A stretch of DNA of 64,000 nucleotides from Salicibibacter cibarius. Its GTDB lineage: Bacteria > Bacillota > Bacilli > Bacillales > Marinococcaceae. Position numbers and translations under genes: made by a program. Under the pieces are notes generated by a model. It was not told where the DNA came from. It did no database searches and was given only the letters and a program-made list of their open reading frames with translations. The stretch's first letter is position 1, and the number at the start of each line of letters is the position of its first letter. The stretch spans positions 1,736,001 through 1,800,000 of the forward strand of contig NZ_CP054705.1 of assembly GCF_016495725.1 (NCBI RefSeq), given 5' to 3'. This document shows, piece after piece, positions 24,387 through 62,452 of the stretch.

Positions 24387-24413
24387 CTGAAAAAGAACGG
24401 AGTGATATATAAT

Positions 24414-26413: not shown

Positions 26414-26428
26414 TATGGAGTGAATGAA

Positions 26429-27457: not shown

Positions 27458-27471
27458 GAGATTATAACTAT

Positions 27472-28473: not shown

Positions 28474-28483
28474 AGGAGGGTGA

Positions 28484-28990
28484 ATGATGCGAACGTATTT
28501 GCAAGTAATAGATAAAATGAATGACATATTAAAATATGTTACATCATTTTTTATAGCACTGCTTGCTATATTGGTGATAATACAAGTCTTCAGTAGGTTT
28601 GTCATCAATTTTCCGTTCATTTGGTCGGAAGAAGTAGCTCGCTATGCAATGGTTTATGTAGTCTTTTTGGGGTCAGCATTGGCTACACGATACAATCAGC
28701 ATATTGCAATTGATTTTTTGCTTCAGATAGTTAGTGAAAAAAAGCAAAACAAATTAAAAATTATAATCACATGGGTAAGTATTTTATTTTTTGCCTTGCT
28801 ATGTTACCAAGGTGCTATTTTGACAGTGACCGTATGGGAACAGACATCACCTACCACAGGGCTTTCAATGTCATGGGCATATGCAGCTATACCGCTTGGA
28901 GCTGGCATGATGCTTTTAAACGCATTAGCACTGCTTTCAGAGATGAAGGTGTCGGGGATTGACGAACAGGAAGGTGATGTTCAGTGGTAA
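28484..28990 (+). CDS. TRAP transporter small permease (DctQ)
   Basis: A 168-residue four-helix membrane protein with the DctQ signature FIWSEEVARYAMVYVVFLGS. AAGGAGGG precedes two successive ATGs, either of which could start it. It overlaps the large permease gene by seven bases. Confidence 0.9.
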   Translation: MMRTYLQVIDKMNDILKYVTSFFIALLAILVIIQVFSRFVINFPFIWSEEVARYAMVYVVFLGSALATRYNQHIAIDFLLQIVSEKKQNKLKIIITWVSILFFALLCYQGAILTVTVWEQTSPTTGLSMSWAYAAIPLGAGMMLLNALALLSEMKVSGIDEQEGDVQW

Positions 28991-35166: not shown

Positions 35167-35200
35167 TCTTTCAATTTTAAAGAGAAGTGGAGTGAAGAAT

Positions 35201-43678: not shown

Positions 43679-45100
43679 CTAATTATATGGTTCTTCCTCG
43701 TCTTTATTTAAATATAATTTAAATGGTTTTATCAAACTAAACAGGAAATAAACACCTCCACTTATTATCATTGAAAAGCCGGTTGCTGTTGTATAAAGAA
43801 AAAGATCACTATTAATAGTCGCAGTAATCGGGTTGTAAACATAAAGATAACCTAGGATACCTATCGTAAGTGAAAGGATAGCGAATATATTGAATCCACC
43901 GGTATATCTATAAGCTTTATCTCCCTTTGATTGAAAAAGAGAATTAAGAGACACTTTTCTTTTTCTTATTATATAAAAGTCAACCAGCACAAGGGCGATT
44001 ATCGGTCCACAAATAGCTCCAAATAACGATAACAGCACATCGTAGTAATCCAATATACCTCCCCAGAATATTAAAATGACACAAAATATACTCCAAAAAA
44101 CCAAAACCTTATTGTAACTCCATGTTGGATTAACTATTTTTGTGCTTACTGAAAAACTATATATCGTAACAGCATGAGTAGTGATGTTTGCCAAGACAAT
44201 AAGTATTAATGAAAGAGACCCTAATACCGGTCCACCTAACTCAACCAACCATTCCGTTGGATCAATGCTAGTCCTACCTGTCATAGACAACATTCCCAAT
44301 GCTGTCAAACTCCCAATACAGACAAAAATAGCCATAAGAACTGAAAAACCACCAAGATGTCCCCAGTAGCTTGCTCGCTCACTCGTCACAAGTCGTGCAT
44401 AAACACCAAGTGCAACAAACCACGCAAAGACAAAGGCAATATTCCATTCCATCACCATCATATAGTTTGCAAGATCACTGCCGTATGCATTTGATTCTAA
44501 TGGTTCTATAGATGCTAGCTCCGAAAGAGAAAATTGACTAAAGACGGTATAAATAATAATAACGCCCACAAGTAAAAAGAGAGGGACCATTAATCGAGAG
44601 ATTTTTTTCACTATTATAGGTCCCTTAAAGGCGATCCAACTGCCAATTATAATACAGGTCGATCCGATCCAGGGATGCCAAGTGTTGTTCAAAACAAAGC
44701 CGGCAGATTCAGAAAGATATAACAGGGAATTTCCATATACCGTAGCATTAGTAACTAACATACCCATGCTGATGCCAATGGCTAGCACAGATAGAAACAC
44801 GACACCAACATAACCAAACAGAGCTCTTTGATACACCCAAATATCAATTCCATACCTTGTTGTAATTATGACAGCGAGAAATAAAATTATGCCAGCTAAT
44901 GTCATTCCAAATAAAGTAGAGGTTAGGGCTTCCTTCATTCCAAGTAGAGAAACATTATTTCCTCCTTGAACATACGTCCATGTAGCTATGGACCATGTAC
45001 CTGTTACAAATAAAATATCCTTAAAACCATAGACCCTCTCTTTATGAAGGACCGGAATTGTGCCAAAAAACACTTCATCATTGACGTTATTTTTACTCAT
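43679..45100 (-). CDS. NCS1-family nucleobase/cytosine-type permease
   Basis: A 473-residue carrier with about 12 helices. NCS1 features: GFKDILFVTGTWSIATWTYV then QGGNN in helix 1, WHPWIGSTCIIIGSWIAFKG, VLVDFYIIRKRKV near helix 10. It imports a nucleobase, hydantoin, allantoin or related compound by cation symport. AGGAGG precedes the ATG by five bases. It belongs to a minus-strand module with a small membrane protein upstream; no catabolic enzyme for the substrate is directly adjacent. AT-rich relative to neighbours. Confidence 0.87.
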   Translation of the reverse strand: MSKNNVNDEVFFGTIPVLHKERVYGFKDILFVTGTWSIATWTYVQGGNNVSLLGMKEALTSTLFGMTLAGIILFLAVIITTRYGIDIWVYQRALFGYVGVVFLSVLAIGISMGMLVTNATVYGNSLLYLSESAGFVLNNTWHPWIGSTCIIIGSWIAFKGPIIVKKISRLMVPLFLLVGVIIIYTVFSQFSLSELASIEPLESNAYGSDLANYMMVMEWNIAFVFAWFVALGVYARLVTSERASYWGHLGGFSVLMAIFVCIGSLTALGMLSMTGRTSIDPTEWLVELGGPVLGSLSLILIVLANITTHAVTIYSFSVSTKIVNPTWSYNKVLVFWSIFCVILIFWGGILDYYDVLLSLFGAICGPIIALVLVDFYIIRKRKVSLNSLFQSKGDKAYRYTGGFNIFAILSLTIGILGYLYVYNPITATINSDLFLYTTATGFSMIISGGVYFLFSLIKPFKLYLNKDEEEPYN

Positions 45101-45750: not shown

Positions 45751-46527
45751 TTAATTCGAACTTGCTGATACGCCACCATCAATTCGATATTGGCTACCTG
45801 TGATAAAGGAACTGTCATCAGACGCTAAGAATAAAACTAATTTGGCAATATCAGCCGCCTCGGCATATCTTCCTAATGGAATGACTTGCTCATACTGTTG
45901 CTTTCTCTCCATAGCCCCGTCTGGATTTTCACCTTCTTCTAACGATCGCATCATTCTCGTATTTACACTTGTAGGGTGGATGGAATTCACACGTACATTT
46001 TCATTGGCTACTTCAAGCGCAGCAGTTTTTGTCAGTCCAACGACAGCATGTTTTGAAGCAACGTAAGGTGATATTCCAGCCTCTCCTGCCCATCCAGCAT
46101 CAGAAGAGGTATTAATGACACTTCCGGTTTTATTCTCTTTCATGATTGGTAAAACATATTTTAAGCCTAAAAAAACGCCCCGGGCATTGACACTCATAAC
46201 CTTATCGAAGTCATCTATCGATTGATCGATCAAGGGAGACACTTTGCCTTCAATCCCAGCGTTATTAAAGAAAATATCAATCGATCTAAAATGTTCAATT
46301 GCTTTATTCACATAATTGATGACATCCGACTCTTGGCTGACATCAGCTTGAACCGTGATGACCTCACCGTATTTTTCAAGTTCTACCTTTGCATTTTCAA
46401 GGGATGTTTGTGATAAATCTACTAATACAACTTTAGCACCTTGATGTAAAAATAACCTTGCTGTTTCCTTACCAATCTCGCCTGCCCCTCCTGTAACGAT
46501 TACAACCTTATCTGTCAAGTTAGTCAT
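45751..46527 (-). CDS. Short-chain dehydrogenase/reductase
   Basis: A 258-residue classical SDR: TGGAGEIGKETA (cofactor glycines), NNAGIEG, catalytic Ser in INTSSDAGW, YVASK as YxxxK, and a GGVSASSN end. Asp in VVLVDLSQ after the second strand favours NAD(H) over NADP(H). AGGAGGTTAATC precedes the ATG. It stands between two carrier genes on the minus strand; the substrate alcohol or ketone is unknown. Confidence 0.9.
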   Translation of the reverse strand: MTNLTDKVVIVTGGAGEIGKETARLFLHQGAKVVLVDLSQTSLENAKVELEKYGEVITVQADVSQESDVINYVNKAIEHFRSIDIFFNNAGIEGKVSPLIDQSIDDFDKVMSVNARGVFLGLKYVLPIMKENKTGSVINTSSDAGWAGEAGISPYVASKHAVVGLTKTAALEVANENVRVNSIHPTSVNTRMMRSLEEGENPDGAMERKQQYEQVIPLGRYAEAADIAKLVLFLASDDSSFITGSQYRIDGGVSASSN

Positions 46528-46778
46528 TGTGATTAACCTCCTGTTAAATTCTGTTTGTCATACGTTTTGATTTTACTCTTTTAATTAACGCGTTTTATTC
46601 GACAAGGGATCAAGCAAACCACCTTTGCTAACATCTGGCCCCCTTTTTGAGATTCTCTAATGTTAGATATGCGACTTTTCGAACGGACTTAAACTTCCTA
46701 TGCTATTCCCATAACCGTCTATCCGGTTTTTTATCAATCGAAAATTAGATAGGGCTTATAGGAACTAAAATATACGCT

Positions 46779-48359
46779 TTAATTATTTATATTGCGTCCC
46801 TTTTCAACAAACATGTCATCTTCTTGATCAGCTATCCTTTTTCTATGCGATTTGTCTTCACCAAAATCTTCTTTGACAGATTTAATAAAGGACATAGTCA
46901 CCAAAGCAAATACCAATATCATAGGGACCCCTACAATAACGGAAGATAATTGAACTGCCTCTAATCCACCTATATACATTATAAATATACCTACGACTCC
47001 CAGAATAAGTGCCCATGATAACCTGTGGATACGGGCAGGCTGTCCTGTATGATCTAATTTATTACTGGCTATGGAGGCTAGAATAAAGGAAGCGGCGTCA
47101 AAGGTTGTTGCGGAAAATACTATATAGACGACAATTAGTAGTGCTATTATGATTGCACTCAAAGGTAATGTATTCATAACTGCCACTACAGCATCCGTTT
47201 CTCCTTCATTAACCATTATTGAATTGACTGGAACTAGGTTGGATAACTCAAGGTTTAAGCCGTAGTTTCCATAGACACTAAAAAATATCCAAGTTCCCAC
47301 TGGACCTACGAGGCATTGGGTTAAGATCAACTGTCTGATCGTACGGCCTTTAGAAACCCTGGCCGTAAACAAGCCTATTAATGATGCATAACCGATCCAC
47401 CACGCCCAATAAAAAACAGTCCATGCTTGGGGAAATCCTTCGTTGCGAATGGCGTCTAGGTTCAATCCCATTCGAAAAAAATCATTAAACATTGTACCTA
47501 AAGCTTGTATGGAATTATCTAACATAAAGATGCTAGGTCCTATCATAAACACGATAGCAGTGATTACGATAACGATGATTATATTAAAATTAGAGAGTCT
47601 TTTAATTCCTTTATTAAGACCAACATATACACTTGTACCAAATATAATCACCCAGAGAGCGATAACAATGACTAATAATCCAAATGTGACAGGAATATTA
47701 AACAACTCACCTATAAATCGTGCCACCATGGGGGCTACTAAGCCTATACTTGTTCCTACCACCCCAATCAAACCAATCATCGTTATAATATCGATAATTC
47801 TACCAACTACCCCGTCGGAGTGTTTTCCTAGTACAGGTCTGCACACAACACTAAGTTTTAATTGAGGTATTTTTCTTACATAAAGGGCGTATGCGATCGG
47901 AATACTGGGTAGGGCATAAATAGCCCATGCAAGAATGCCCCAGTGAAAAAAACTATAAGGAATTGCCCACTCTGCAGCGCTTAATGACCCTGGTTCTATT
48001 CCAAAAGGGGGTTCATTAAAAAAATAAAATGGTTCCATCACAGATTCATACATAATCTCCGCGCCTATTCCAGTGGTGAAAATCATCGCAAACCAACTAA
48101 ACGTTGAAAACTCTGGTTTATCGTCGGGGTCCCCTAATTTGATGCGACCCAGCCGACCAAAAACTAACCAAATAAAAAAAACCAGTATCGCAAAAGGAAA
48201 TAACAGATAGAGCCATCCAAAATTACTCGTGATGAAATCTAATGTTGCGCCTACAACATTTTCCGTAGCCGAAGGATTTACTGCAATAGGTGTTAACACA
48301 AATAATAAAAGGACTAAAACTGGCCAAATTATTTTGTGATCTAAGTTCAAGTTTTTCAC
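46779..48359 (-). CDS. BCCT-family betaine/carnitine/choline transporter
   Basis: A 526-residue carrier of about 12 helices. BCCT motifs: FSWFAMIFTTGIGAEIMYES, WGILAWAIYALPSIPIAYAL, and FYWAWWIGYASLIGLFTARV then SKGRTIRQL. The usual W-x-PF segment here reads YASLI, a departure from typical glycine-betaine members, and the G-x-G glycine stretch in helix 3 reads TTGIGAEIMYE. It imports a quaternary amine or related solute, for osmoprotection or catabolism. GTG start with AAAGGGAG nine bases upstream. Confidence 0.9.
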   Translation of the reverse strand: MKNLNLDHKIIWPVLVLLLFVLTPIAVNPSATENVVGATLDFITSNFGWLYLLFPFAILVFFIWLVFGRLGRIKLGDPDDKPEFSTFSWFAMIFTTGIGAEIMYESVMEPFYFFNEPPFGIEPGSLSAAEWAIPYSFFHWGILAWAIYALPSIPIAYALYVRKIPQLKLSVVCRPVLGKHSDGVVGRIIDIITMIGLIGVVGTSIGLVAPMVARFIGELFNIPVTFGLLVIVIALWVIIFGTSVYVGLNKGIKRLSNFNIIIVIVITAIVFMIGPSIFMLDNSIQALGTMFNDFFRMGLNLDAIRNEGFPQAWTVFYWAWWIGYASLIGLFTARVSKGRTIRQLILTQCLVGPVGTWIFFSVYGNYGLNLELSNLVPVNSIMVNEGETDAVVAVMNTLPLSAIIIALLIVVYIVFSATTFDAASFILASIASNKLDHTGQPARIHRLSWALILGVVGIFIMYIGGLEAVQLSSVIVGVPMILVFALVTMSFIKSVKEDFGEDKSHRKRIADQEDDMFVEKGRNINN

Positions 48360-50126: not shown

Positions 50127-50156
50127 TTGACAGAAAACCGAATAGACGGTTATGGT
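50127..50156 (+). promoter_or_regulatory. tetR promoter with operator in the spacer
   Basis: TTGACA (50127-50132) and TATGGT (50151-50156), spacer 18. AACCG-6-CGGTT (50136-50151) lies in between, three bases after the -35 box, the same layout as at 51056 and 51543. Confidence 0.7.
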
Positions 50157-50185
50157 TATAGAAATTGTATGGGAGGTACATGTGC

Positions 50186-50713
50186 GTGTCGAAAAAAATG
50201 GATGATGAGTTACTAGAAGCAACCCAGCGTGTGATCAACGAAAGAGGAGTTGCATATTTGACAATAGAAAATGTCGCAAAAGAGGCAGGTGTTAGTAAGG
50301 GTGGTTTGCTTTATCACTTTCCGAGTAAAAGCGCGTTAATTGAAGGCGTAATTAAAGAAGTGTTAGAGCGTTATTCGGAAGAAATGGAAAATCTCAACAC
50401 GAATGATACGGATACTGGGCATTTTTTAAGATCCTATGCTGAAGCATCATTGAATAATCCACAGCAATTGACTGCAGGCTTATTAGCGGCAATTGCAACA
50501 GACAAAGAACTATTAAAACCCGTACAAAATAACTATCGAGAATGGCAAGAAAGAATTGAAAATGATGGTTTGGATCCGATCATGGCAACGATCTACAGAC
50601 TTGCTATTGATGGGTTATGGTTCTGTGATATATTTGGGTTAGCACCACCAGAAGAAGCGCATAGAAGGGATGTATTGGAAAAATTATATCGTCTAACACG
50701 AGAAACATCATAG
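50186..50713 (+). CDS. TetR/AcrR-family repressor
   Basis: A 175-residue regulator. The N-terminal helix-turn-helix is plain: LTIENVAKEAGVSKGGLLYH then FPSKSALIEGVI; the rest is an all-helical ligand domain with two Trp (LKPVQNNYREW, IDGLWFCDIFGL). GTG 50186 lies nine bases after GGGAGG; ATG 50180 is too close to it. Palindromes inside its own promoter and inside the promoter of the carboxylase operon (51543) make it the likely repressor of ketone use, with the ketone or its product as inducer. Confidence 0.88.
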   Translation: MSKKMDDELLEATQRVINERGVAYLTIENVAKEAGVSKGGLLYHFPSKSALIEGVIKEVLERYSEEMENLNTNDTDTGHFLRSYAEASLNNPQQLTAGLLAAIATDKELLKPVQNNYREWQERIENDGLDPIMATIYRLAIDGLWFCDIFGLAPPEEAHRRDVLEKLYRLTRETS

Positions 50714-50775: not shown

Positions 50776-50860
50776 GTTTGATATGATGAACTGTCGATGA
50801 TAACAGGGGATAAAAAGTCAAAATTGTTTATGTGAAAAAACATACCTCAATTCTTAATAT

Positions 50861-50971
50861 CCGATCGGTCATATTGGCGAACCAAATGATATTGCTAAAG
50901 ATCGAATGAGTGAAGACTCCAAATTTGTATCGGCTCAGAACTTGGGATTTGCCGGAGGTTGTAGTGATTAG
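50861..50971 (+). pseudogene. SDR C-terminal relic
   Basis: Translation gives HIGEPNDIAK, MSEDSKFV and QNLGFAGGCSD then TAG, the standard end of a classical short-chain dehydrogenase with a small internal deletion. The catalytic parts are missing. Confidence 0.65.
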
Positions 50972-51055
50972 AAATCGTTAGGTCAGCATTATTCGTTATC
51001 GGAGAAGCCTTATCGATGTCATATTTCAGGTCATAACAAAAAAAGCATTCGTATA

Positions 51056-51085
51056 TTGACAACTAACCGTATGGACGGTTAGTAT
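51056..51085 (+). promoter_or_regulatory. Orphan promoter with perfect TetR-type operator
   Basis: TTGACA (51056-51061), spacer 18, TAGTAT (51080-51085). A 22-bp palindrome ACTAACCG-6-CGGTTAGT spans 51062-51083. It now drives only debris, though it could add transcripts to the carboxylase operon downstream. Confidence 0.7.
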
Positions 51086-51231
51086 ATTTTATAGAAGGAG
51101 GGATCATTATAAAAATGGTTAATATGTTATAAAATTTTTGTGGATCACACGTATCAAAATTCCCTTAGCTATATCGACCTTATTAAATGCTTAGAACCCT
51201 ATCATGATAAGGGGGGATTCATGCTGGGATG

Positions 51232-51301
51232 ATTAGACGGAAAAGTGGCTTTGAACACTGGTGAAAGTTCGGGTTTAGGAGTCGCCACTGGCAAAAGGTA
51301 A
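51232..51301 (+). pseudogene. SDR N-terminal relic
   Basis: LDGKVALNTGESSGLGVATG then TAA: the first strand and TGxxxGxG cofactor loop of a short-chain dehydrogenase. Together with the C-terminal relic at 50861 it points to lost ketone/alcohol dehydrogenase genes of this regulon. Confidence 0.6.
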
Positions 51302-51542
51302 ATAAAGAAATCCTTTTGGCATGATACGATGGAAAAAATGAGTGGGAAAATTGTTGTTACGGGTCAGAACTTGAGTTTGACAAAGGTTATACGATTTGGT
51401 CATCAATGGATCGTTACGCGTTATGATCGGTGTAGTGTTTTGAGACTCATTCTCCAGAACTTCTCCGGAAAAACAACTGAAAAATTGAATTCAGTTAGAA
51501 AATATAAACGAATGTTTAAAAATGAAAGAAAAAATTAGTATA

Positions 51543-51572
51543 TTGTCAACATGCCGTATGGATGGTTATTAT
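51543..51572 (+). promoter_or_regulatory. Promoter and operator of the carboxylase operon
   Basis: TTGTCA (51543-51548), spacer 18, TATTAT (51567-51572), with GCCGTATGGATGGTTA inside the spacer, aligned with the operators at 50136 and 51062. Confidence 0.7.
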
Positions 51573-51664
51573 ATGATGAAAATAGATAACTACTTGAACG
51601 TCTAAAAGAATTAAAAAGACAGACGACATTAGTACTTAAGTTACAACGAAGGAAGAGGTGCGCT

Positions 51665-53812
51665 ATGAAACAGACAAAACCACTCGTACTCGGTATCGAT
51701 GCCGGTGGCACGATGACCGACACGATTCTCGTGGATAAACAGGGCAACTTTGCTGTCGGTAAGGCGCCGACCACGCCCGGTCACGAAGCAGAAGGGTTTA
51801 TAGAATCTGCGCGAGACGCTACCGACCTCTGGAATCTGGATATAGATAAAACCTTTGAAGAGTTGGAAGTTATCCTATATTCAGGTACGGGCATGCTGAA
51901 TACTTTGCTGTCCAGGACAGGCAAACGCATCGGGCTCATCGTGACGCGAGGGATGGAAGATGCCGTACTTATGGGAAGAGGAATGGAGTCATGGACGGGT
52001 TATTCATACCCAGACCGCTTGCATGCGGTTACTCATGCTCATCCTGATCCCCTACTGCCTCGTAGCCGGGTGCGCGGTGTTACCGAGCGTGTCGATCAGT
52101 TTGGCCAAGTGGTCATTCCCGCTTATGAGCACGAGGCTACAAGCGGTGTGAAAGAACTTTTAGAGCAGGATATTGAAGCGCTTTGCATATGCTGCATGTA
52201 TTCCCACGTCAACCCTGAACATGAATTGCTAATTGGCGAAATGGCCCAGCGAGTCCTGGCGGAACAAGGTGTCGACATTCCGATTTACTTCAGTCATCAG
52301 CTTCGGCCGATCATTCGCGAGCAGTCTCGATTAAACAGTACGCTCATTGAGGCATATGCCACCGCCAAGGGTCGTGACCAGCTTTTAGGCGTTGAAGCAG
52401 CCGCTAAGCAACATGGTTTTTCACATAGTGTGCAAACGATGCTCTCATATGGAGGGCTTGCCAACGTGCGCTATCCCCGTCTTCATGAGACGATGATCTC
52501 GGGACCGGTCGGCGGCCTTTTGGGTGCCAAACATGTTGGTGAATTGGTCGGTGCGGACTCGGTGATCGTCAGTGATATGGGAGGGACGAGTTTTGATATC
52601 GGTGCCGTTACCCGCGGTAAGATCCCTATTGATAATGAGCCAACCTTGGCCCGATTTAAGCTGAATTTGCCAACGTTAGCGATGGATACCATCGGTGCCG
52701 GTGGCGGTACCATCGTCAAGGTGGATCCCTATACACACAAGGTTAGTTTAGGGCCCGAAAGCGCTGGCTCTGTTCCGGGTCCAGTGGCCATGGATATGGG
52801 AGGTACGGAACCGACCATTGCTGACTGTGACGCAGTCATGGGTCGCTTAAACCCGGATAACTTCCTCGGTGGCAAGGTCCGACTCAATATCGAGAAGGCA
52901 AAGCAGGTGCTGCAGGAAAAAGTGGCCGATCCCTTGGGCGTCGATGTGTATGAAGCGGCTGAAGGGATGGTGAATTTGCTGGAAATGGAAGCTAGATCTT
53001 CCATTGAATCCATCATTTCTACTCGTGGTGTTGATCCAAGTGAATACCATTTGATGTCTTATGGTGGATCTGGTCCGCTTCATATGGCCGAGTACAGCCG
53101 CGGTTTAGGTTTTAGCGGTGTCATGACATTTCCCTTTGCAGCAGCCTTTTCGGCTTTTGGCTGCACAACCGCGGATTATTTGCATCGACACAGTCAATCG
53201 GTCCATATTATGATCGACCCTGATGCGTCGGAGAAGGATCGGGATAAGGTTCGCCGACAGATTAATGAGATTTGGAACGAACTCGACGCCCATGCCAGAG
53301 ATGAGTTGATCTCTGAAGGCCATGATTCAGATGCGGTCATCTGTGAGCCTTTTGCCATGATGCGGTATACCGGCCAATTGGAAGATGTTGAAGTGACGGC
53401 ACCGGCAGTGAAATTGGAGTCGGATGATGACTTGCATCAGCTCACACAGGCTTTTGAGACCCTGTACGAAACGATCAACCGCAGTGTTTCCAACTATGGA
53501 GAAGCCGAAGCTGGCTTCACAATTATGGAACTTGGCTTAAGCGCACGCGTGGAAAAAGTGAAGCCGGAGCTAACTCGCCGCCCGTTGGGTTCCGCAGAAC
53601 CTAAATCCGAAGCCAGCAAAGGGACACGGTTCATGTATTACAATCGTGCCTGGCATGAGGCGCAGCTATGGGAAATGGACATGTTGGAGCCAGGAAATGT
53701 GCTTGAAGGCCCCGCCATTGTGGAACACCCAGCTACGACTTTGGTCATCCCAACGGGGGATCGAGTTCGTGTAGATGAATGGACCATTTTGCATTATGAA
53801 CATGGAGACTAA
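51665..53812 (+). CDS. acxA: Acetone-carboxylase-like beta subunit (HyuA family)
   Basis: A 715-residue ATP-binding subunit: LGIDAGGTMTDTILVDKQGN, LYSGTGMLNTLLSRTGKRIG, MISGPVGGLLGAKHVGE, DMGGTSFDIGAVTRG and GAGGGTIVKVD. Gene order HyuA-HyuB-small zinc subunit and the AGGTMTD phosphate loop fit acetone or acetophenone carboxylases better than plain hydantoinases. It would phosphorylate the ketone enol and bicarbonate. GGAAGAGG precedes the ATG. GC content is visibly higher than in the flanking debris, consistent with transfer as a unit. The gene symbol is by homology of pattern only. Confidence 0.82.
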   Translation: MKQTKPLVLGIDAGGTMTDTILVDKQGNFAVGKAPTTPGHEAEGFIESARDATDLWNLDIDKTFEELEVILYSGTGMLNTLLSRTGKRIGLIVTRGMEDAVLMGRGMESWTGYSYPDRLHAVTHAHPDPLLPRSRVRGVTERVDQFGQVVIPAYEHEATSGVKELLEQDIEALCICCMYSHVNPEHELLIGEMAQRVLAEQGVDIPIYFSHQLRPIIREQSRLNSTLIEAYATAKGRDQLLGVEAAAKQHGFSHSVQTMLSYGGLANVRYPRLHETMISGPVGGLLGAKHVGELVGADSVIVSDMGGTSFDIGAVTRGKIPIDNEPTLARFKLNLPTLAMDTIGAGGGTIVKVDPYTHKVSLGPESAGSVPGPVAMDMGGTEPTIADCDAVMGRLNPDNFLGGKVRLNIEKAKQVLQEKVADPLGVDVYEAAEGMVNLLEMEARSSIESIISTRGVDPSEYHLMSYGGSGPLHMAEYSRGLGFSGVMTFPFAAAFSAFGCTTADYLHRHSQSVHIMIDPDASEKDRDKVRRQINEIWNELDAHARDELISEGHDSDAVICEPFAMMRYTGQLEDVEVTAPAVKLESDDDLHQLTQAFETLYETINRSVSNYGEAEAGFTIMELGLSARVEKVKPELTRRPLGSAEPKSEASKGTRFMYYNRAWHEAQLWEMDMLEPGNVLEGPAIVEHPATTLVIPTGDRVRVDEWTILHYEHGD

Positions 53813-53875
53813 GCGCCAAAAACAGAGGGTTACGTGCTGTAGAACGTGGTTCAACCTGAAAAAAGGAGGATCCTT

Positions 53876-56068
53876 ATGAATGACGCATCAAAAAACGAAA
53901 CCATGACATTCAAGGAGCAGTTGCTCGAGTACGATCGTAAATTTCGTGAAACGGGCTGTTATGCCGGAATAACGGAATTGAAATACCGTGAGGATGATCC
54001 TCTACGCTATGAAAGCTTGCACACTAAGCTCCGTTCAATGACGATAGCCGCCCGGGAGATGGCCCGTAGCATTTCGGCTTCGCCCGGCGTACGAGAGGTG
54101 GGGGAAATGGTCGTGGCGTTGTATACGCCCGAAGGTGACGCGATCAGCCTCTCCACTGGAATTATGGTTCACGTACACACGATGAGCCGGTTTATCAAAT
54201 GGATGATTCAAAATGGTTACGAGGAATCGCCAGGCATTTGTCCCGGTGACATTTTTGCCAACAATGACGCTTTCATCGGTACGGTTCAGGTTCCGGACGT
54301 GATGGTCGTCGTCCCAATCTTCTATGAGGGCGAGCTAGTCGGTTGGGCGGGGACAGTCGCCCACGAATTGGAGGTCGGCGGTATCACGCCGGGTGGTGAC
54401 GTATACTTGGCTCAAGAACGCTTTACCGAGGGATTGTTCGTTACCGCTGAAAAAGTGGGCTACAATGATGAGTTGCGCCGGGATTATCTGATCCGGTTGG
54501 AGCGGAACCTTCGAATGCCCATCTATTGGATGTTCGACGACAAAGCGAAAGTTGCGGCTAACCTGGAATTACGGGATCAGGTAAAAGAGCTTATCGATGA
54601 CGTCGGTTTGGACTACTACAAACGGGCGACCCGGGAATTCATTGAAGAAGGTCGCCGCGCGCAACTTTCGCGAGTGAAACAGCTTATGGTACCTGGGCGC
54701 TATCGGGGGCATACGTTTTATGGCCATCTTACCGAAGGTAAGCCCGGCATATTGCCCCTAAGTGACGGAAACCTGCTGTATTCTATCCCTCTCGAACTAG
54801 AGGTGAACGGTGACGGTCAGATGCACTTAGACTTCGAAGGCACCGGTTCTTGGGGGTATCACTCGATGAACTGTACGCCAGCGGGCATGGACGGTGGTTT
54901 GTTTGTCACCCTCACCCAGTCTATGAACTATGAAGGCAAGGTGAACGATGGAGCTTGGTTAGCCACCGATATGAATTTACCGTTGGGAACCTGGACCAAT
55001 CCAGATCGTCACACTGTGGCGACGGCGACGTCCTGGGCGCTTCTGCTACCGGCCTTCGGTATTTTTCAGCGGTTGCTCAGCCGGGGTTTTGTAAGTCGAG
55101 GCTTCAAAGAAGAGGCATTTGTCGGTCAGGTCAACAGTCCAATGGTTGAAATGGGTGGTCAAAGCCAGTACGGCGATCAGTTCGGGATGGCTTTGTTTGA
55201 GTGCTCGGCAGCCGGAAGCGGCGCCCTCGGTATTAAAGACGGGATTGATACTGGGTATGTTGGCTGGAACCCCGAATCTGACATGGGGAATATGGAAGTG
55301 TGGGAACAGGGGATACCGATGCTCTATTTAGGCCGTAACATCACGGCCGATTCGGGCGGTCCCGGTCGCCACCGCGGTGGTACGTCCTTCACTTCGACGT
55401 GGCTCGTGCACAACACAGATGAATTGACGATAGCCACGTCAGAGCATTCCAGTCGCGTGTTTGATAACGCCGGCATGTGCGGCGGTTACCCGGCACCGAC
55501 GGCACACAGGCACTTTACCGTGCGCAACAGCAACATCCAGCAGATCATCGATGAACAAAAACCGTTGCCGCACGAATTGGGTAACGATCCATATAAGAGC
55601 GACATGGAACGGTTGGTTGAGGGCGACATGAATGTGATAGAAGGTCCACATATTGATAAACCGTTGCAATCCGGTGATCTGTTTGCCCATTCATACAACG
55701 GTGGCGGCGGCTATGGCGATCCCATTGAACGTGACCCGTTGGAGATCGTGCGGGATGTAGAAAACGGCTATGTGACCGCGGAAATTGCCGAAAGGACCCA
55801 TGCTGTCGTGCTTAACCATGATAAGGAACGTAATGCATGGCATGTCGACGAAGACGCAACTGCGTCTCTGCGGAAGAAAACTCGAAATGGCCGATTGAAT
55901 AAGGCAGTTCCGGTTGAGGAATGGATCGAGTCCGAGCGTGAACGTGTGTTGGAAAGAGATTTCGTCACTGAAGTACGTAAGATGTATCAGGATACCATGG
56001 GCATTTCGAGCCGTTTTAACGAGGAATTTCGGGAATTCTGGCGGTTGCCCAAAGACTTTGTAATGTGA
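53876..56068 (+). CDS. acxB: Acetone-carboxylase-like alpha subunit (HyuB family)
   Basis: A 730-residue subunit: TELKYREDDPLRYESLHTKL, CPGDIFANNDAFIGTVQVPD, VGWAGTVAHELEVGGITPGG with Asp/His placed like the Mn ligands of acetone carboxylase, SGGPGRHRGGTSFTSTW and YNGGGGYGDPIERDP. It would bind the metal and join ketone and carboxyphosphate into a beta-keto acid. ATG 53876 follows AAAAGGAGG by seven bases; the ORF opens further upstream without support. It is longer than hydantoinase B proteins (about 550), as expected for ketone carboxylases. Confidence 0.82.
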   Translation: MNDASKNETMTFKEQLLEYDRKFRETGCYAGITELKYREDDPLRYESLHTKLRSMTIAAREMARSISASPGVREVGEMVVALYTPEGDAISLSTGIMVHVHTMSRFIKWMIQNGYEESPGICPGDIFANNDAFIGTVQVPDVMVVVPIFYEGELVGWAGTVAHELEVGGITPGGDVYLAQERFTEGLFVTAEKVGYNDELRRDYLIRLERNLRMPIYWMFDDKAKVAANLELRDQVKELIDDVGLDYYKRATREFIEEGRRAQLSRVKQLMVPGRYRGHTFYGHLTEGKPGILPLSDGNLLYSIPLELEVNGDGQMHLDFEGTGSWGYHSMNCTPAGMDGGLFVTLTQSMNYEGKVNDGAWLATDMNLPLGTWTNPDRHTVATATSWALLLPAFGIFQRLLSRGFVSRGFKEEAFVGQVNSPMVEMGGQSQYGDQFGMALFECSAAGSGALGIKDGIDTGYVGWNPESDMGNMEVWEQGIPMLYLGRNITADSGGPGRHRGGTSFTSTWLVHNTDELTIATSEHSSRVFDNAGMCGGYPAPTAHRHFTVRNSNIQQIIDEQKPLPHELGNDPYKSDMERLVEGDMNVIEGPHIDKPLQSGDLFAHSYNGGGGYGDPIERDPLEIVRDVENGYVTAEIAERTHAVVLNHDKERNAWHVDEDATASLRKKTRNGRLNKAVPVEEWIESERERVLERDFVTEVRKMYQDTMGISSRFNEEFREFWRLPKDFVM

Positions 56069-56080
56069 GGAGCGATGATG

Positions 56081-56593
56081 ATGGCAAGCTATAATCACGA
56101 CACTGTTCGTGACTTAATTGATGGCCGACTTCCTTGGCAGTCGACGCGATCCATTATGAGTCAGTATAAAGATGATGATCGGTTTTTCAAGTATATCGAT
56201 ATTCTTCAGGAACGAGTAACATTCAACGATCCGATCTTGTTGCCGATCGGTGAACATTTATATATTGTTGCCAAGCAGGGAGAGCCGCAAGGTGAGCGAG
56301 TCGTCAAATGCGGCTGTGGTTATGAGTTTGGTCACTACACTCAAAACTGGAAGCTGAAGGCCGCGATCAATGTTCGAGATGAAGAAGAGGAAATTGCTGA
56401 AATTTATCCTGGACGTCATAGCTATGATCCGGACTGGATGGAAATTCGCGAGTTTATTTGCCCGGGTTGTGCCACGTTGCTAGAAGTGGAGGCAGCGGCG
56501 CCGGGATACCCGATCGTTTTTGATTTTCTGCCAGACTTAGAGACGTTTTACCGCGATTGGCTCGGTCAAGAGCTACCAGCCGAGACCAGGTGA
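56081..56593 (+). CDS. acxC: Acetone-carboxylase-like gamma subunit
   Basis: A 170-residue subunit with two CxC/CxxC pairs (VVKCGCGYEFGHY, FICPGCATLLEVEAAAPGYP) that form a zinc site, and the FKYIDILQERVTFNDPILLP opening seen in acetone carboxylase gamma subunits. The presence of this third subunit is the best evidence that the operon encodes a ketone carboxylase and not a hydantoinase. Three ATGs in a row follow GAGGAG; the third has the best spacing. Confidence 0.85.
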   Translation: MASYNHDTVRDLIDGRLPWQSTRSIMSQYKDDDRFFKYIDILQERVTFNDPILLPIGEHLYIVAKQGEPQGERVVKCGCGYEFGHYTQNWKLKAAINVRDEEEEIAEIYPGRHSYDPDWMEIREFICPGCATLLEVEAAAPGYPIVFDFLPDLETFYRDWLGQELPAETR

Positions 56594-56939
56594 TGAAAAC
56601 AACGCTCGTCTTTTAATAGAACTTGTCCTTAAAGGGCGAAGTTCACTAGCAAAGAGTAACCATCCGGGGATTGGAATCTAAGGGTGGTTACTGCTTTTGG
56701 TGTCGTCGTTTTTTGCATCCCCGCCGTAAGTGATTGTAAGCAGTGATTAAATGATCGGAGGTCGGCGAGGGGGCAAAGTCAATGATACCCCGCACGTTTT
56801 TATTGCTCATGAGTCGACCGTGTAACAGAAGCAAGGATGTCTCATTGGTTAGAGACTTGAGAAACTGAACGGTGCAAACTGTTCTAAGGATACCAATATA
56901 AAAGCGCATCGTGTTTTGCTTAACAAGGGAGGATTCTTA
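56594..56939. other. 346-base gap in the carboxylase region
   Basis: No gene is supported. A 73-codon minus-strand frame (56688-56909) matches nothing I know. The downstream gene has its own ribosome site; no terminator is clear, so readthrough from acxC is possible. Confidence 0.45.
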
Positions 56940-57821
56940 ATGGCCAAAACGATTATTACGGCAGCAGTGACTGGGGCAGGGGAGACGACTGAGAAAAGCC
57001 CGCACGTTCCAATCACGCCAAAGGAGATTGCGGACGCAGCCATCGAATCAGCAAAAGCAGGCGCAGCAATCGTTCATATTCATGTGCGTAATCCCGAAAC
57101 GGGAAGATTGAGTCATGATCCAAAGCTATTTCAGGAGGTTGTAGATCGCATTCGTGATTCAGAGATTGATGTGGTCATTAATATAACAGCGGGCGGCGGA
57201 GGGGACTTTGTGCCTGATTTAGATAACCCAACCCAAGGGGGTGCTGGAACTGATATCCAAACCCCGGAAGAACGTCATGAACCTGTGGGGAAATTATTCC
57301 CGGAAATATGCACGCTCGACTGTGGCAGTATCAATTTCGGTGATCAAGTGTACCTGGGTCCAGCCGGTTGGTTGCGTGAACATGCAACGCTTATCCAACA
57401 AAGTGGCGTAAAACCCGAGCTGGAGATATTTGATACAGGACAGCTGCGTTTGGCTAATCAGCTCTATTATGATGGATTAATTGATGGAAATCCAATGTAC
57501 CAGTTCTGCTTGGGTATACCTTGGGGAGCTGCGGCAGATGTCGAAACCATAACCTATATGCGAGACCGAATCGTTGATGGGGCAAGTTGGTCCGCTTTTG
57601 GCATCGGTCGTATGCAATTGCCGATGGTGGCTCAGGCCGCGCTACTTGGTGGAAATGTCCGCGTGGGTTTGGAAGATAACTTGTATCTTGAAAAAGGGGT
57701 ACTTGGTACAAATGCTCAGTTGGTGGACAAGGCTGTCGATATTCTTCAAGGCGTTAATGTCGAGCCTATGACTCCTCGGGAAGCTCGTGAAACCTTACAA
57801 CTTCGGACGTTTAAAAATTAA
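56940..57821 (+). CDS. Beta-keto acid cleavage enzyme (BKACE, DUF849)
   Basis: A 293-residue TIM-barrel zinc enzyme: IITAAVTGAGET, PKEIADAAIESAKAGAAIVH followed by IHVRNPETGR (the two zinc His), INITAGGGG, LDCGSINFGDQVY and VRVGLEDNLYL (the zinc-binding Glu of GxEDN). BKACE enzymes condense a beta-keto acid with acetyl-CoA to give acetoacetate and a new acyl-CoA. ATG 56940 follows AAGGGAGG. Being next to a ketone carboxylase, whose product is a beta-keto acid, it is a natural second step. Confidence 0.88.
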   Translation: MAKTIITAAVTGAGETTEKSPHVPITPKEIADAAIESAKAGAAIVHIHVRNPETGRLSHDPKLFQEVVDRIRDSEIDVVINITAGGGGDFVPDLDNPTQGGAGTDIQTPEERHEPVGKLFPEICTLDCGSINFGDQVYLGPAGWLREHATLIQQSGVKPELEIFDTGQLRLANQLYYDGLIDGNPMYQFCLGIPWGAAADVETITYMRDRIVDGASWSAFGIGRMQLPMVAQAALLGGNVRVGLEDNLYLEKGVLGTNAQLVDKAVDILQGVNVEPMTPREARETLQLRTFKN

Positions 57822-59621: not shown

Positions 59622-61037
59622 TCATCTCAATCCATGCCCCTTAGGAAAACAACACCGACACAACGCCTCCACCGCTTCATCAATCTCCTCCGGTTTTAAT
59701 TTTGCAAAGCCGATGATCAGTGTCGCCGGTATGCTTCCCGATGCTTTTTGCATAAAACGTTGAATGGAATATAGTTCAAGGTCCATCTTTTCCGCTCGCT
59801 CTATAATCGCTTCGATTGGTTCCTCTATATCCAAATGCAACAAAAAGTGCAAGCCGGCTTTTTCTCCTTCCACCTGAACGCGTGATCCGAAATGTTGCTG
59901 TATCGCAGCGATCAGCTTTTCTCTCAGCTCTTTATAGTATTTGCTCATGCGTTTAATGTGCTTATCATAGTCGCCACTTTTCAGAAAACGAGCCAGGGTC
60001 AATTGCGTGAGAACGGAAGTCGTTTGCATAAAATGTAGCCCTTTTTCTTTGAAAATATCGATCAACCCCAACGGCAATGCCATGTAACTCATCCTAAGAT
60101 CTGGAAGTAGTGATTTCGAAAAAGAGTCGATATATATTACTTTTTCATTGACGTCCAAGCTTTGTAATGAAGGAATGATGTCTCCCTCGTATTTAAACTC
60201 GGAATCATAATCATCTTCGATCACATATCTATTTTCCGTTTCATAGCACCAATGAAGCAATTCTGTTCGGCGTGACACCGGCATAATCGATCCTGTCGGC
60301 ATTTGGTGGGAAGGGGTGACGATCGCGATATTCGCAGGTGTTTTCCGTAATTTTTCTACTTCTATGCCACGCTCATCCACAGGTACGTGATAGACGGGGG
60401 TACCCATCGTTTTTAACAAGGAACTGAGGCGATGATACCCTGGTTCTTCGATGGCAAACGGTTCGCTTTCGGCAATAACCATTAGGAATAGCTGCAAGAG
60501 CCATTGCATGCTCGCGCCGATGACAATTTGTTCGGGTTCACAGATGACCCCGCGCGTATGCCGGATTTTATTGGCCACAATTTCCCGTAGTTTATAGATG
60601 CCTTGGGGATGGTTAATATCTGAAAGCAAAGCTTTATCTTCGCTCATCGCTTTCTGCTCACTTTGGTGCCAATCATGAAAAGGAAAAAGGGAAGCGTCCA
60701 CGCCCATGTGGGAGAAGGAATAACGATACGATTTCGGGCGAGTTTCCGATAATTTGGGGTCGAGCTTCTTTTCTACGTTTAGAGGGCGAATCGGATGGAT
60801 CGTTTCCACGAAATAACCGCTTCGTTCTTTCGTGTATAAATACCCTTCCGCGATCAGTTGACTATAAGCAGAAAGGACACTGTTTTGGCTAACGTTCAAT
60901 GATGTCGCTAGCGTCCGTTTTGAAGGCAGTTTAGTTTCAGCCGCCAACGTTCCTTGCAAAATTTCATTTTTTATCCATTCATAAATTTGTTTATAAACAG
61001 GAAGTGAATGGTCTCGATCAATCGGGATATGAAGCAT
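59622..61037 (-). CDS. gabR: GabR-like MocR-family regulator (PLP-binding)
   Basis: A 471-residue protein: N-terminal GntR winged helix (LAAETKLPSKRTLATSLNVS then QNSVLSAYSQLIAEGYLY) fused to a fold-type I aminotransferase domain (IVTPSHQMPTGSIMP, EDDYDSEFKY, and the PLP-lysine YIDSFSKSLLPDLRMSYMAL). It is divergent from gabT and gabD, as in B. subtilis, where PLP and GABA make GabR an activator. ATG 61037 follows GGAGG by five bases. Its 3' end is duplicated at 40961 and, in decayed form, at 31031. Confidence 0.9.
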   Translation of the reverse strand: MLHIPIDRDHSLPVYKQIYEWIKNEILQGTLAAETKLPSKRTLATSLNVSQNSVLSAYSQLIAEGYLYTKERSGYFVETIHPIRPLNVEKKLDPKLSETRPKSYRYSFSHMGVDASLFPFHDWHQSEQKAMSEDKALLSDINHPQGIYKLREIVANKIRHTRGVICEPEQIVIGASMQWLLQLFLMVIAESEPFAIEEPGYHRLSSLLKTMGTPVYHVPVDERGIEVEKLRKTPANIAIVTPSHQMPTGSIMPVSRRTELLHWCYETENRYVIEDDYDSEFKYEGDIIPSLQSLDVNEKVIYIDSFSKSLLPDLRMSYMALPLGLIDIFKEKGLHFMQTTSVLTQLTLARFLKSGDYDKHIKRMSKYYKELREKLIAAIQQHFGSRVQVEGEKAGLHFLLHLDIEEPIEAIIERAEKMDLELYSIQRFMQKASGSIPATLIIGFAKLKPEEIDEAVEALCRCCFPKGHGLR

Positions 61038-61050
61038 GCTAACCTCCAAC

Positions 61051-61080
61051 TGGTACCATTATAAATTTAAAATTGGTACT
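61051..61080. promoter_or_regulatory. Direct repeats TGGTAC(C/T), probable GabR sites
   Basis: TGGTACC at 61051 and TGGTACT at 61074 are direct repeats 23 bases apart between the divergent gabR and gabT. Their complement (G/A)GTACCA resembles the ATACCA repeats bound by B. subtilis GabR. Confidence 0.55.
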
Positions 61081-61156
61081 GTTAAGGATATCAAAAAACG
61101 CTTACAATGACAAAAACATTGATTCATGAAAGCGCTATAAATGAGGAGGTTTTCAT

Positions 61157-62440
61157 ATGACTACTTGGCAAGAAAAAAGAGATCGTTATATTCCCAAAGG
61201 CGTGGGAAATGGCAATCGAGCAATTGCGAGCCACGGCAAAGGGGCAACGATTTACGATGAGGAAGAAAACGTCTACATTGATTTCGCCGGAGCGATCGGT
61301 GTCATGAATGTCGGGCATTCTCACCCAAAAGTCGTGGAAGCTGCCCAACAACAAATCGATAAAGTGGCTCATCCCGGCTTTAACGTCATCATGTATGACG
61401 GCTACATTAAGCTTGCCGAGCGTCTTTCCAAGCTCGCCCCGGGGGATTTTGATAAAAAAACACTATTGTTGAATAGCGGAGCCGAAGCAGTGGAGAACGC
61501 GGTGAAAATTGCGCGGAAAGCGACAGGCAGACAAGCGGTCGTGACGTTTAAACGCGGATTTCATGGTCGGACAAATATGACGATGGCTATGACCGGCAAG
61601 GTGAAACCATATAAATTTGGGTTTGGCCCTTTTGCACCTGAAGTCTACCATGCGCCTTATCCGTATATGTTTCGCAAGCCGGAAGAACAAGGCGATGACA
61701 CCTATGTAAAGTCTGCGATCGATGATTTTGATTTATTTTTAAAAACGGAAGTGGCGCCTGAAGAAGTAGCGTGTGTTGTGATGGAGCCGGTGCAAGGGGA
61801 AGGCGGCTTTATCATTCCGCCGAAGGCTTTTGTGGAATATGTTGCGAAGCGCTGCCAAGAACACGGCATTCTTTTAGTGGCGGACGAGATCCAAACCGGG
61901 TTCGCACGTACCGGTGCTTGGTTCGCGAGTGAACATTTCGGTATTACACCTGATTTAATGACGCTATCAAAATCGTTAGCGGCCGGCTTTCCATTAAGTG
62001 CTGTTGTTGGAAAAGCTGACGTTATGGATGCGGCTAATCCTGGTGAACTAGGTGGAACATTCACAGGTAATGCTGTTGCGTGTCAAGCAGCTCTAGCTGT
62101 CTTGGATATCATTGAAGAAGAAAATTTAAATGAGCGTGCGGAAGTCGTCGGTCGTCAATTTGAAGATAAAGTTCGCACTTGGGAAGAGAAATATTCATTT
62201 GTTCGCGGTTTTCGCCGTTTAGGCGCGATGGCTGCTTTTGAAATCGTTAAAGGCGATGGAAAGACGCCGGATGCAGAGAAAACAGCCGCGATTTTAAAAG
62301 CCGCCAATGCTTCGGGACTTTTACTGCTTTCTTCAGGTTTGTACAGTAATGTCATACGTTTTCTAGCACCGGTCGTAATCACGGATAAAGAATTGGATAA
62401 AGGGTTAGAAATCCTTGAAGACGTATTGAAGCAACAGTGA
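61157..62440 (+). CDS. gabT: 4-aminobutyrate aminotransferase
   Basis: A 427-residue class III aminotransferase: FAGAIGVMNVGHSHPKVVEA, LLLNSGAEAVENAVKIARKA, MEPVQGEGGFIIPPKAFVEY, ADEIQTGFARTG (PLP Asp) and the Schiff-base lysine in TLSKSLAAGFPLSAVVG. It moves the amino group of GABA to 2-oxoglutarate, giving succinic semialdehyde for GabD, encoded 12 bases downstream. Divergence from gabR supports GABA over other omega-amino acids. Confidence 0.92.
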   Translation: MTTWQEKRDRYIPKGVGNGNRAIASHGKGATIYDEEENVYIDFAGAIGVMNVGHSHPKVVEAAQQQIDKVAHPGFNVIMYDGYIKLAERLSKLAPGDFDKKTLLLNSGAEAVENAVKIARKATGRQAVVTFKRGFHGRTNMTMAMTGKVKPYKFGFGPFAPEVYHAPYPYMFRKPEEQGDDTYVKSAIDDFDLFLKTEVAPEEVACVVMEPVQGEGGFIIPPKAFVEYVAKRCQEHGILLVADEIQTGFARTGAWFASEHFGITPDLMTLSKSLAAGFPLSAVVGKADVMDAANPGELGGTFTGNAVACQAALAVLDIIEEENLNERAEVVGRQFEDKVRTWEEKYSFVRGFRRLGAMAAFEIVKGDGKTPDAEKTAAILKAANASGLLLLSSGLYSNVIRFLAPVVITDKELDKGLEILEDVLKQQ

Positions 62441-62452
62441 GGGGGATCTACG

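What the first reader, a model, noticed from the sequence alone, without database searches (positions are those of the whole stretch)
51543..57821. Ketone carboxylase paired with a BKACE enzyme: possible new ketone degradation route
Seen: HyuA-like, long HyuB-like and zinc gamma subunits in acxABC order, then a BKACE (DUF849) gene. Known: acetone/acetophenone carboxylases make beta-keto acids; BKACE condenses beta-keto acids with acetyl-CoA to give acetoacetate plus a different acyl-CoA. Inference: a ketone R-CO-CH3 would become R-CO-CH2-COO-, then R-CO-CoA and acetoacetate, with no CoA ligase. With acetone itself the BKACE step would be degenerate, so the substrate is probably a larger ketone.
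Basis: partly seen in the sequence, partly recalled or inferred. Interest (0 to 1): 0.75.

Follow-up and report, generated by a model that had tools for sequence, protein, structure and literature searches.

The report
Carboxylase linked to carnitine breakdown
These bacterial genes look like a relative of the acetone-carboxylating enzyme that has probably been retuned to turn a positively charged ketone related to carnitine back into a carnitine breakdown intermediate, which the neighbouring enzyme then cleaves; this would be a new use for a known enzyme family.

Summary
In detail: HyuA-like, long HyuB-like and gamma-subunit genes in the order known for acetone carboxylases, then a BKACE gene. 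The same genome has a second BKACE, 87% identical, in an operon whose dehydrogenase best matches L-carnitine dehydrogenase (just under the curated cut-off), with a thioesterase. The window carboxylase belongs to its own clade (37-43% identity to acetone-carboxylase-like proteins) that travels with BCCT or choline/betaine-binding genes, a shared operator and SDR dehydrogenases. BKACE lies near it in 5 of 9 Bacillaceae-type carriers. A single origin of these linked BKACEs is rejected (AU test p 0.0003); they resemble the carnitine-operon copies of their own lineage. All 14 clade HyuB-like subunits carry Gln where acetone carboxylase has metal ligand His150. Best reading: the enzyme carboxylates trimethylaminoacetone to 3-dehydrocarnitine, which BKACE and acetyl-CoA convert to betainyl-CoA and acetoacetate, ending in glycine betaine. 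Every reaction is inferred, none shown. New variant of a known kind; confidence about 0.57, lowered slightly on re-checking because the dehydrogenase misses its cut-off. The ketone's source is open.

The parts
51665..53812 (+). HyuA-like ATP-binding subunit of the carboxylase (beta in Xanthobacter naming), 715 aa; motifs DAGGTMTD, DMGGTS, GSVPGP present
53876..56068 (+). HyuB-like metal-site subunit (alpha in Xanthobacter naming), 730 aa; Glu77, Asp141, His163 kept, Gln138 in place of the metal ligand His150
   Evidence: ligands from PMC8453981 (passages)
56075..56593 (+). gamma subunit, 172 aa, CxC...CxxC cysteines kept
56655..56692 (+). terminator-like hairpin between gamma subunit and BKACE
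   Evidence: limits counted from the fold
56940..57821 (+). BKACE, most likely 3-dehydrocarnitine cleaving (87% identical to the BKACE of the carnitine-type operon of the same genome)
50165..50713 (+). TetR-family regulator, matched beside the carboxylase in G001 and G006 (77-82%)
50136..50151 (+). operator-like palindrome AACCGAATAGACGGTT (11 of 12) in a promoter-like site before tetR
51065..51080 (+). perfect palindrome AACCGTATGGACGGTT in a promoter-like site, before the second set of SDR remnants
51552..51567 (+). weaker copy TGCCGTATGGATGGTT (9 of 12; not significant alone) in the promoter-like site just before the carboxylase
46713..46728 (-). copy AACCGTCTATCCGGTT (11 of 12) upstream of the SDR gene
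45751..46527 (-). SDR dehydrogenase (57-67% identical to SDRs in the same cluster of G101, G102, G104, G148, G256); candidate maker of the ketone
46779..48359 (-). BCCT transporter (passes TIGR00842; best specific model CaiT, 462.5 of 541 bits, under cut-off); relatives of 68-90% identity beside the carboxylase in the 8 other Bacillaceae-type carriers
43679..45100 (-). NCS1-type permease, also near the carboxylase in Natribacillus (86%)
50846..51399 (+). decayed SDR fragments matching the intact SDR between TetR and carboxylase in G001

Best explanation
The three subunits form an ATP-dependent, biotin-free carboxylase of the acetone carboxylase type whose substrate is most likely trimethylaminoacetone (acetonyl-trimethylammonium), not acetone. 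A quaternary ammonium compound is taken up by the BCCT transporter, an SDR dehydrogenase can make the ketone from the matching alcohol (beta-methylcholine is the obvious candidate), the carboxylase adds bicarbonate to the methyl group and gives 3-dehydrocarnitine, and BKACE with acetyl-CoA gives betainyl-CoA and acetoacetate. Betainyl-CoA then yields glycine betaine through the thioesterase of the carnitine-type operon elsewhere in the genome. Shown by computation: gene content, clade, linkage, shared operator-like sites, BKACE kinship. Inferred: every reaction, the substrate, what the regulator binds, and transport.
For: (1) The second BKACE of the genome (87% identical) lies in an operon with a dehydrogenase whose best model is L-carnitine dehydrogenase NF005471 (E 4.9e-114, 380.7 bits; cut-off 414) and a thioesterase matching the C-terminal part of the carnitine 3-dehydrogenase model NF005716 (116.4 bits, that part only). 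The same model is best for the dehydrogenase next to BKACE in the 7 other carriers tested (327-387 bits, all under the cut-off). (2) Carboxylase-linked BKACEs resemble the carnitine-operon BKACEs of their own lineage (G101 92%; G000 vs G006 carnitine copy 90%), against 67-70% between the linked copies of G000/G001 and all copies of G101, G102, G104, G148, G256, while the HyuB-like subunits of these two sets are 88% alike; one common origin of the linked copies is rejected (p-AU 0.00026 for 5 rows, 0.0039 for 6). So a carnitine-type BKACE came to lie beside the same carboxylase at least twice. (3) BKACE near the carboxylase in 5 of 9 Bacillaceae-type carriers; about 9e-8 under a crude model of random placement that treats carriers as independent. 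(4) BCCT gene in 9 of 9 of these carriers, OpuAC-family binding protein in 5 of 9, choline-type binding protein and SDR after the carboxylase in 4 of 4 rhizobial organisms; the S. meliloti one passes the choline-binding model TIGR03414 (480.6 bits, cut-off 379.05). (5) The dehydrogenase at E <= 1e-100: 66 of 159 genomes of one family, 6 of 6 carriers (P 0.0045), 0 of 3 acetone-carboxylase carriers (P 0.20, no evidence alone). (6) A shared palindrome 113-167 bp before the first gene: 12 of 12 positions in 7 of 9 carriers, 11 in one, 9 in the window. (7) PMC12482172 (passages) reports more trimethylaminoacetone in carnitine-grown Citrobacter and cites carnitine breakdown through it to glycine betaine in Pseudomonas AK1.
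Against: No activity data. None of the 8 dehydrogenases tested reaches the curated cut-off for L-carnitine dehydrogenase, and no carnitine dehydrogenase is among its matches in solved structures, so the carnitine label rests on best match plus operon content. G102, G103 and G104 have only the carnitine-type BKACE, not one near the carboxylase; the extra BKACE of G006 is on a separate 3.8 kb contig; Brevibacterium and the rhizobial loci show none near. G002 and G003, same genus without the carboxylase, also have dehydrogenase and BKACE, and G002 two sets, so co-occurrence inside the genus says nothing. BKACE looks like a separate transcription unit in the window and no shared operator was found for it. 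The SDRs of the clusters are of several unlike subtypes (25-45% between them), G103 shows none, and Brevibacterium shows neither BCCT nor choline-binding gene nearby. The Gln-for-His change could mean altered or lost carboxylation chemistry. The carriers are related, so counts are not independent.
Confidence: 0.57

Rival explanations
1. Metabolite repair: 3-dehydrocarnitine decarboxylates spontaneously to trimethylaminoacetone (recalled chemistry), and the carboxylase puts the carboxyl group back during carnitine breakdown. Same reaction, different purpose; the SDR would then act on another compound, for example D-carnitine.
For: Trimethylaminoacetone is seen in carnitine-grown cells (PMC12482172, passages). 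All 6 carriers in one family have the carnitine-type dehydrogenase. The BCCT gene scores best among specific models with CaiT, under its cut-off.
Against: The cluster has its own regulator, transporter genes and SDR and lies apart from the carnitine-type operon, which suits an external substrate better. The rhizobial operon keeps SDR and choline-type binding protein without BKACE.
Confidence: 0.2
2. One reading: a plain ketone such as butanone or an aromatic methyl ketone is carboxylated, and BKACE yields propionyl-CoA or an aroyl-CoA.
For: Nearest solved enzymes are acetone carboxylases; BKACE chemistry allows it (recalled).
Against: BKACE is close to carnitine-type operon BKACEs, and quaternary-ammonium-type transport genes are the most constant neighbours in the Bacillaceae-type and rhizobial loci; neutral ketones need no such transporter. 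NCBIfam acetophenone carboxylase models score far below cut-off.
Confidence: 0.09
3. The carboxylase acts on some other cationic or zwitterionic substrate carried by BCCT or choline-type ABC systems, and BKACE near it only shares the neighbourhood.
For: BKACE not seen near the carboxylase in G102, G103, G104, Brevibacterium and the rhizobial loci; hairpin before BKACE.
Against: Two separate arrivals of a carnitine-type BKACE make chance unlikely. All 10 carrier genomes searched have the carnitine-type dehydrogenase, and the 8 of them searched for both have it next to a BKACE.
Confidence: 0.14

Closest known systems
Acetone carboxylase (Xanthobacter autotrophicus, 5svb/5m45)
   Same: Three subunits in the same gene order, near full-length alignment of each, ATP motifs DxGGTxTD and DxGGT, gamma cysteines, Glu/Asp/His of the metal site
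   Different: 37-43% identity of the two large subunits to acetone-carboxylase-like loci; separate branch (91/94); Gln in place of His150 in 14 of 14; other neighbours
Acetophenone carboxylase (Aromatoleum, 5l9w)
   Same: Family and chemistry; carboxylase genes followed by the gene of an enzyme that makes the CoA compound (PMC5214803, passages)
   Different: Three subunits, not four or five; BKACE instead of a CoA ligase; NCBIfam scores far under cut-off
Bacterial L-carnitine degradation (carnitine dehydrogenase, BKACE, thioesterase; S. meliloti, Pseudomonas; through PMC12482172, passages)
   Same: BKACE 86-90% identical to copies in such operons of its genus and of Natribacillus; such an operon elsewhere in the genome
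   Different: The entry to 3-dehydrocarnitine would be a carboxylase acting on a ketone, not a dehydrogenase acting on carnitine

Membership tests
Acetone carboxylase | HyuA-like, HyuB-like and gamma subunit genes in that order | tested here: met
   order as described in PMC5214803 (passages)
Acetone carboxylase | ATP motifs DxGGTxTD and DxGGT in the HyuA-like subunit | tested here: met
   14 of 14 clade members. The third pattern GxxPGP was found in 14 of 14 clade rows but in 0 of 12 AC-like and 1 of 3 Apc-like rows, so it sets the clade apart rather than joining it
Acetone carboxylase | Metal tetrad Glu89-His150-Asp153-His175 in the HyuB-like subunit | tested here: not met
   Glu, Asp, His kept but Gln at His150 in 14 of 14 clade members; His in 12 of 12 AC-like and 3 of 3 Apc-like rows and in 15 of 15 AC-like rows, at least six of which repeat earlier ones. 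Ligands from PMC8453981
Acetone carboxylase | Four zinc-type cysteines in the gamma subunit | tested here: met
   14 of 14 clade rows
Acetone carboxylase | Carboxylates acetone to acetoacetate | not testable with these tools
   needs enzyme assay
Acetophenone carboxylase | NCBIfam equivalog cut-offs and four or five subunits | tested here: not met
   (413.6 of 1500, 209.7 of 1500, 35.1 of 250 bits); three subunits only
BKACE | PF05853 over its whole length | tested here: met
   positions 1-274 of 274
3-dehydrocarnitine-cleaving BKACE | Close kin of BKACEs encoded with L-carnitine dehydrogenase and thioesterase | tested here: met
   the dehydrogenase label is best match under cut-off
3-dehydrocarnitine-cleaving BKACE | Activity on 3-dehydrocarnitine with acetyl-CoA | not testable with these tools
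   needs enzyme assay
L-carnitine dehydrogenase (partner in the second operon) | NF005471 curated cut-off of 414 bits | tested here: not met
   380.7 bits in the window genome; 327-387 bits in 7 other carriers; best model in all 8
[quoted passage not shown]
   266.7 of 382 bits

The most novel reading that the evidence does not exclude
A carboxylase not described in the papers searched, with a Gln-substituted metal site, fixes bicarbonate onto trimethylaminoacetone to make 3-dehydrocarnitine and so opens a route from a beta-methylcholine-type alcohol to glycine betaine; the same clade occurs in halophilic Bacillaceae, Brevibacterium and plant-symbiotic Sinorhizobium.
Probability: 0.48. Interest if true: 0.75.

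Novelty: new variant of a known kind. Interest (0 to 1): 0.62.

Why it matters
If true, ketone carboxylases reach beyond acetone and acetophenone into quaternary ammonium metabolism. It would give trimethylaminoacetone, a compound reported in carnitine-grown cells, an enzyme and a fate, point to beta-methylcholine as an overlooked nutrient, and show a natural metal-ligand swap in this carboxylase family. It would also correct the label 'acetone carboxylase subunit gamma' that these genes carry in public Sinorhizobium and Shinella records.

Tried and rejected
Larger neutral ketone (butanone, acetophenone): set aside because of the BKACE kinship and the transporters. Plain hydantoinase: set aside because of the gamma subunit, the long HyuB-like subunit and acetone carboxylase as best match. 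Lysine-fermentation KCE: below cut-off. Strict operon of carboxylase and BKACE: set aside (hairpin; variable distance and orientation). A palindrome 72 bp before the BKACE start (56868, AACGGTGCAAACTGTT) was tested as an operator shared with the carnitine-type operon: no site with 10 or more of 12 in the intergenic stretch of that operon in L014. Mapping clade-specific residues onto the caprolactamase pocket through the weak alignment put Pro422, Tyr461 and Ser468 near pocket positions named in PMC8453981; I did this by eye, and it carries no weight (Tyr461 also occurs in 1 of 12 AC-like rows). My label 'AC' for loci rests on identity alone; some deep rows (Deltaproteobacteria, Solirubrobacterales, Sulfobacillus) are not known acetone carboxylases, and the tree warns of long branches there. 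A BKACE tree with the Brevibacterium row was mostly unresolved (1 of 13 inner branches starred); the test used the tree without that row.

Literature: 'acetone carboxylase' with BKACE 0 papers, with BCCT 1, with carnitine 4, with Sinorhizobium 6, with choline 5, with glycine betaine 3: listings only, none of these opened. Trimethylaminoacetone, beta-methylcholine and synonyms: 145 papers, 30 listed; dehydrocarnitine and related: 125 papers, 30 listed; locus tags SMb20407-SMb20412: 1 paper; family terms: 3 papers. Seen as passages only: PMC12482172, PMC2131755, PMC5498481, PMC8453981, PMC5214803. The BKACE paper (Bastard 2014), the S. meliloti carnitine paper (Bazire 2019), Lindstedt 1970 and one guessed id were not held; what they show is taken from PMC12482172 or recalled. 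'Not described' means: not found in these searches of an open-licence library.


Full report
What is there. Four genes on the + strand encode a HyuA-like subunit (51665-53812), a long HyuB-like subunit (53876-56068), an acetone carboxylase gamma subunit (56075-56593) and a BKACE (56940-57821), each a clear family match. The best solved relatives of the first three are the acetone carboxylase beta, alpha and gamma subunits. BKACE is 346 bp downstream, after a stable hairpin. The genome (one contig, 4.5 Mb) holds one gamma-subunit gene and two BKACE genes.

The second BKACE gives the clue. It is 87% identical to the window copy and lies between a GbsR/CudC-like regulator (130.5 bits, cut-off 218) and a dehydrogenase plus a 4HBT-type thioesterase, beside a divergent betaine-type ABC transporter whose ATPase passes the proV model. 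The dehydrogenase is best matched by L-carnitine dehydrogenase NF005471 at 380.7 bits, under the cut-off of 414; the same holds in 7 other carriers (327-387 bits). It has no carnitine dehydrogenase among its solved relatives. So 'carnitine operon' is a best-match label, backed by the set of genes: dehydrogenase, BKACE, thioesterase, betaine-type transport. That is the known layout of the pathway carnitine to 3-dehydrocarnitine to betainyl-CoA to glycine betaine (PMC12482172, passages). The window BKACE therefore most likely cleaves 3-dehydrocarnitine. If a ketone carboxylase makes that acid, the ketone is trimethylaminoacetone.

The carboxylase is a clade of its own. Among plasmid records with E under 1e-60 the HyuB-like subunit falls into two bands: 60-80% identity (56 records; the organisms with such listed rows are Sinorhizobium and Shinella) and under 60% (23 records); the listed rows of the second band are 37-39%. 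Genome searches gave nine Bacillaceae-type carriers: the window genome G000, and G001, G006, G101-G104, G148, G256 at 88-95% for this subunit; Brevibacterium (G105) at 71%; acetone-carboxylase-like proteins at 37-42%. G983 has the same contig number and coordinates as G006 and is counted once. Frequency: 3 of 101 relatives (by gamma subunit, read), 6 of 159 in the family of G102, 3 of 397 drawn from its order, 1 of 396 drawn from the order of G105; acetone-carboxylase-like proteins in 3, 11 and 1 of the last three sets. The tree of 29 rows puts the 14 clade members on one branch (91/94), with a warning about long branches.

A metal ligand has changed. Published ligands in Xanthobacter alpha are Glu89, His150, Asp153, His175 (PMC8453981, passages). 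In the window these are Glu77, Gln138, Asp141, His163. Gln is present in 14 of 14 clade members, His in 12 of 12 acetone-carboxylase-like and 3 of 3 acetophenone-type rows. The paper calls His-Asp-His fully conserved across the family; the N-methylhydantoinase 7hk5 appears to have Gln at the last of these in the alignment, so ligand swaps may not be unique. The ATP motifs and gamma cysteines are intact, so a working enzyme is likely, but the effect of Gln is unknown.

The neighbours speak for quaternary ammonium compounds. In the nine Bacillaceae-type loci a BCCT gene is present in 9 (68-90% identity between the window gene and the other eight), a TetR gene in 9 (two kinds, 66-82% and 44-47%, besides the window's own), an SDR in 8, an OpuAC-family binding protein in 5. 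In S. meliloti, S. medicae, Sinorhizobium K101 and Shinella the order is regulator, carboxylase genes, SDR, choline-type binding protein, 4 of 4; in strain ABS7 of S. meliloti the HyuB-like gene is broken into two pieces, in 1021 it is whole. The S. meliloti binding protein passes the choline model. Brevibacterium has SDRs and an NCS1-type permease but no BCCT or choline-type binding gene in its 16 kb stretch. None of 10 acetone-carboxylase-type loci (L019-L023, L032-L036) showed BCCT or BKACE when queried with the window proteins.

BKACE came more than once. It lies near the carboxylase in G000, G001, G101, G148 and G256 (5 of 9), at differing distance and, in G101, on the other side. G102, G103 and G104 have only the carnitine-type copy. 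Linked copies resemble the carnitine-operon BKACE of their own lineage, and one origin for the linked copies is rejected (p-AU 0.00026 without, 0.0039 with the G006 extra copy). Many inner forks of that tree are weak, but the split between the two lineages is 100/100. Against a simple story, the BKACE of G103 falls with the window lineage although its carboxylase falls with the other set.

Regulation. A palindrome AACCGTNNNNACGGTT lies 113-167 bp before the first carboxylase gene: 12 of 12 positions in 7 carriers, 11 in G006, 9 in the window, whose perfect copy is at 51065; further copies precede tetR (50136) and the SDR gene (46713). In five single-base shuffles of the window, sites with at least 10 of 12 number 2.6 on average against 6 observed, and with at least 9 of 12, 22.0 against 35, so the window's own 9-of-12 copy means nothing alone; the weight is in the conserved place across genomes. 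None was found in Brevibacterium at 10 or more. That the TetR binds it is inference.

Co-occurrence. In the family of G102, 66 of 159 genomes have the carnitine-type dehydrogenase at E <= 1e-100; all 6 carriers do (P 0.0045) and none of 3 acetone-carboxylase carriers does (P 0.20). In some searches all 10 genomes have dehydrogenase and BKACE, 8 carriers and 2 non-carriers (G002, G003). The sample is related by descent.

Reading. The enzyme works like an acetone carboxylase but should not be filed as one: a tested defining feature (His150) is not met and activity is untested. Proposed chain: alcohol (perhaps beta-methylcholine) to trimethylaminoacetone by SDR; carboxylation to 3-dehydrocarnitine; BKACE to betainyl-CoA and acetoacetate; thioesterase to glycine betaine, a useful osmolyte in halophiles. 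The repair version, in which the ketone comes from unstable 3-dehydrocarnitine, cannot be separated by sequence. On re-checking I lowered the main confidence from 0.60 to 0.57 and the novel case from 0.50 to 0.48, because the dehydrogenases miss their curated cut-off.

Noticed in passing
window 35192-38939: A second HyuA/HyuB pair without a gamma subunit in this stretch; its HyuB frame (37278-38939) is interrupted by one in-frame stop, so it may be a decayed hydantoinase.
   Followed up: partly
window 50846-51399: Remnants of decayed SDR genes between TetR and the carboxylase, where the related genome G001 has an intact SDR.
   Followed up: yes
window 24402-30255: SBD_N/NBD_C kinase, zinc alcohol dehydrogenase and TRAP transporter parts (DctP, DctM): looks like a sugar-acid type catabolic cluster.
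   Followed up: no
window 59622-63877: MocR-type regulator (passes PdxR model, close to GabR) divergent from an aminotransferase-like gene and a succinate-semialdehyde dehydrogenase.
   Followed up: no
L035 and L036, gamma subunit near 8001: The two Solirubrobacterales-type gamma subunits lack the zinc-type cysteines that the other full-length gamma rows keep.
   Followed up: no
L080 (G006 contig C41): An extra BKACE on a 3.8 kb contig beside two overlapping frames that look transposase-like by eye but match no Pfam family; its link to the carboxylase contig could not be resolved.
   Followed up: partly
S. meliloti pSymB, L040 14495-15325: The operon's SDR resembles 3-hydroxybutyrate dehydrogenases; PMC5498481 (passages) lists smb20409 'putative hydroxybutyrate dehydrogenase' as induced by Clr. 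Whether it is the same gene was not established.
   Followed up: no
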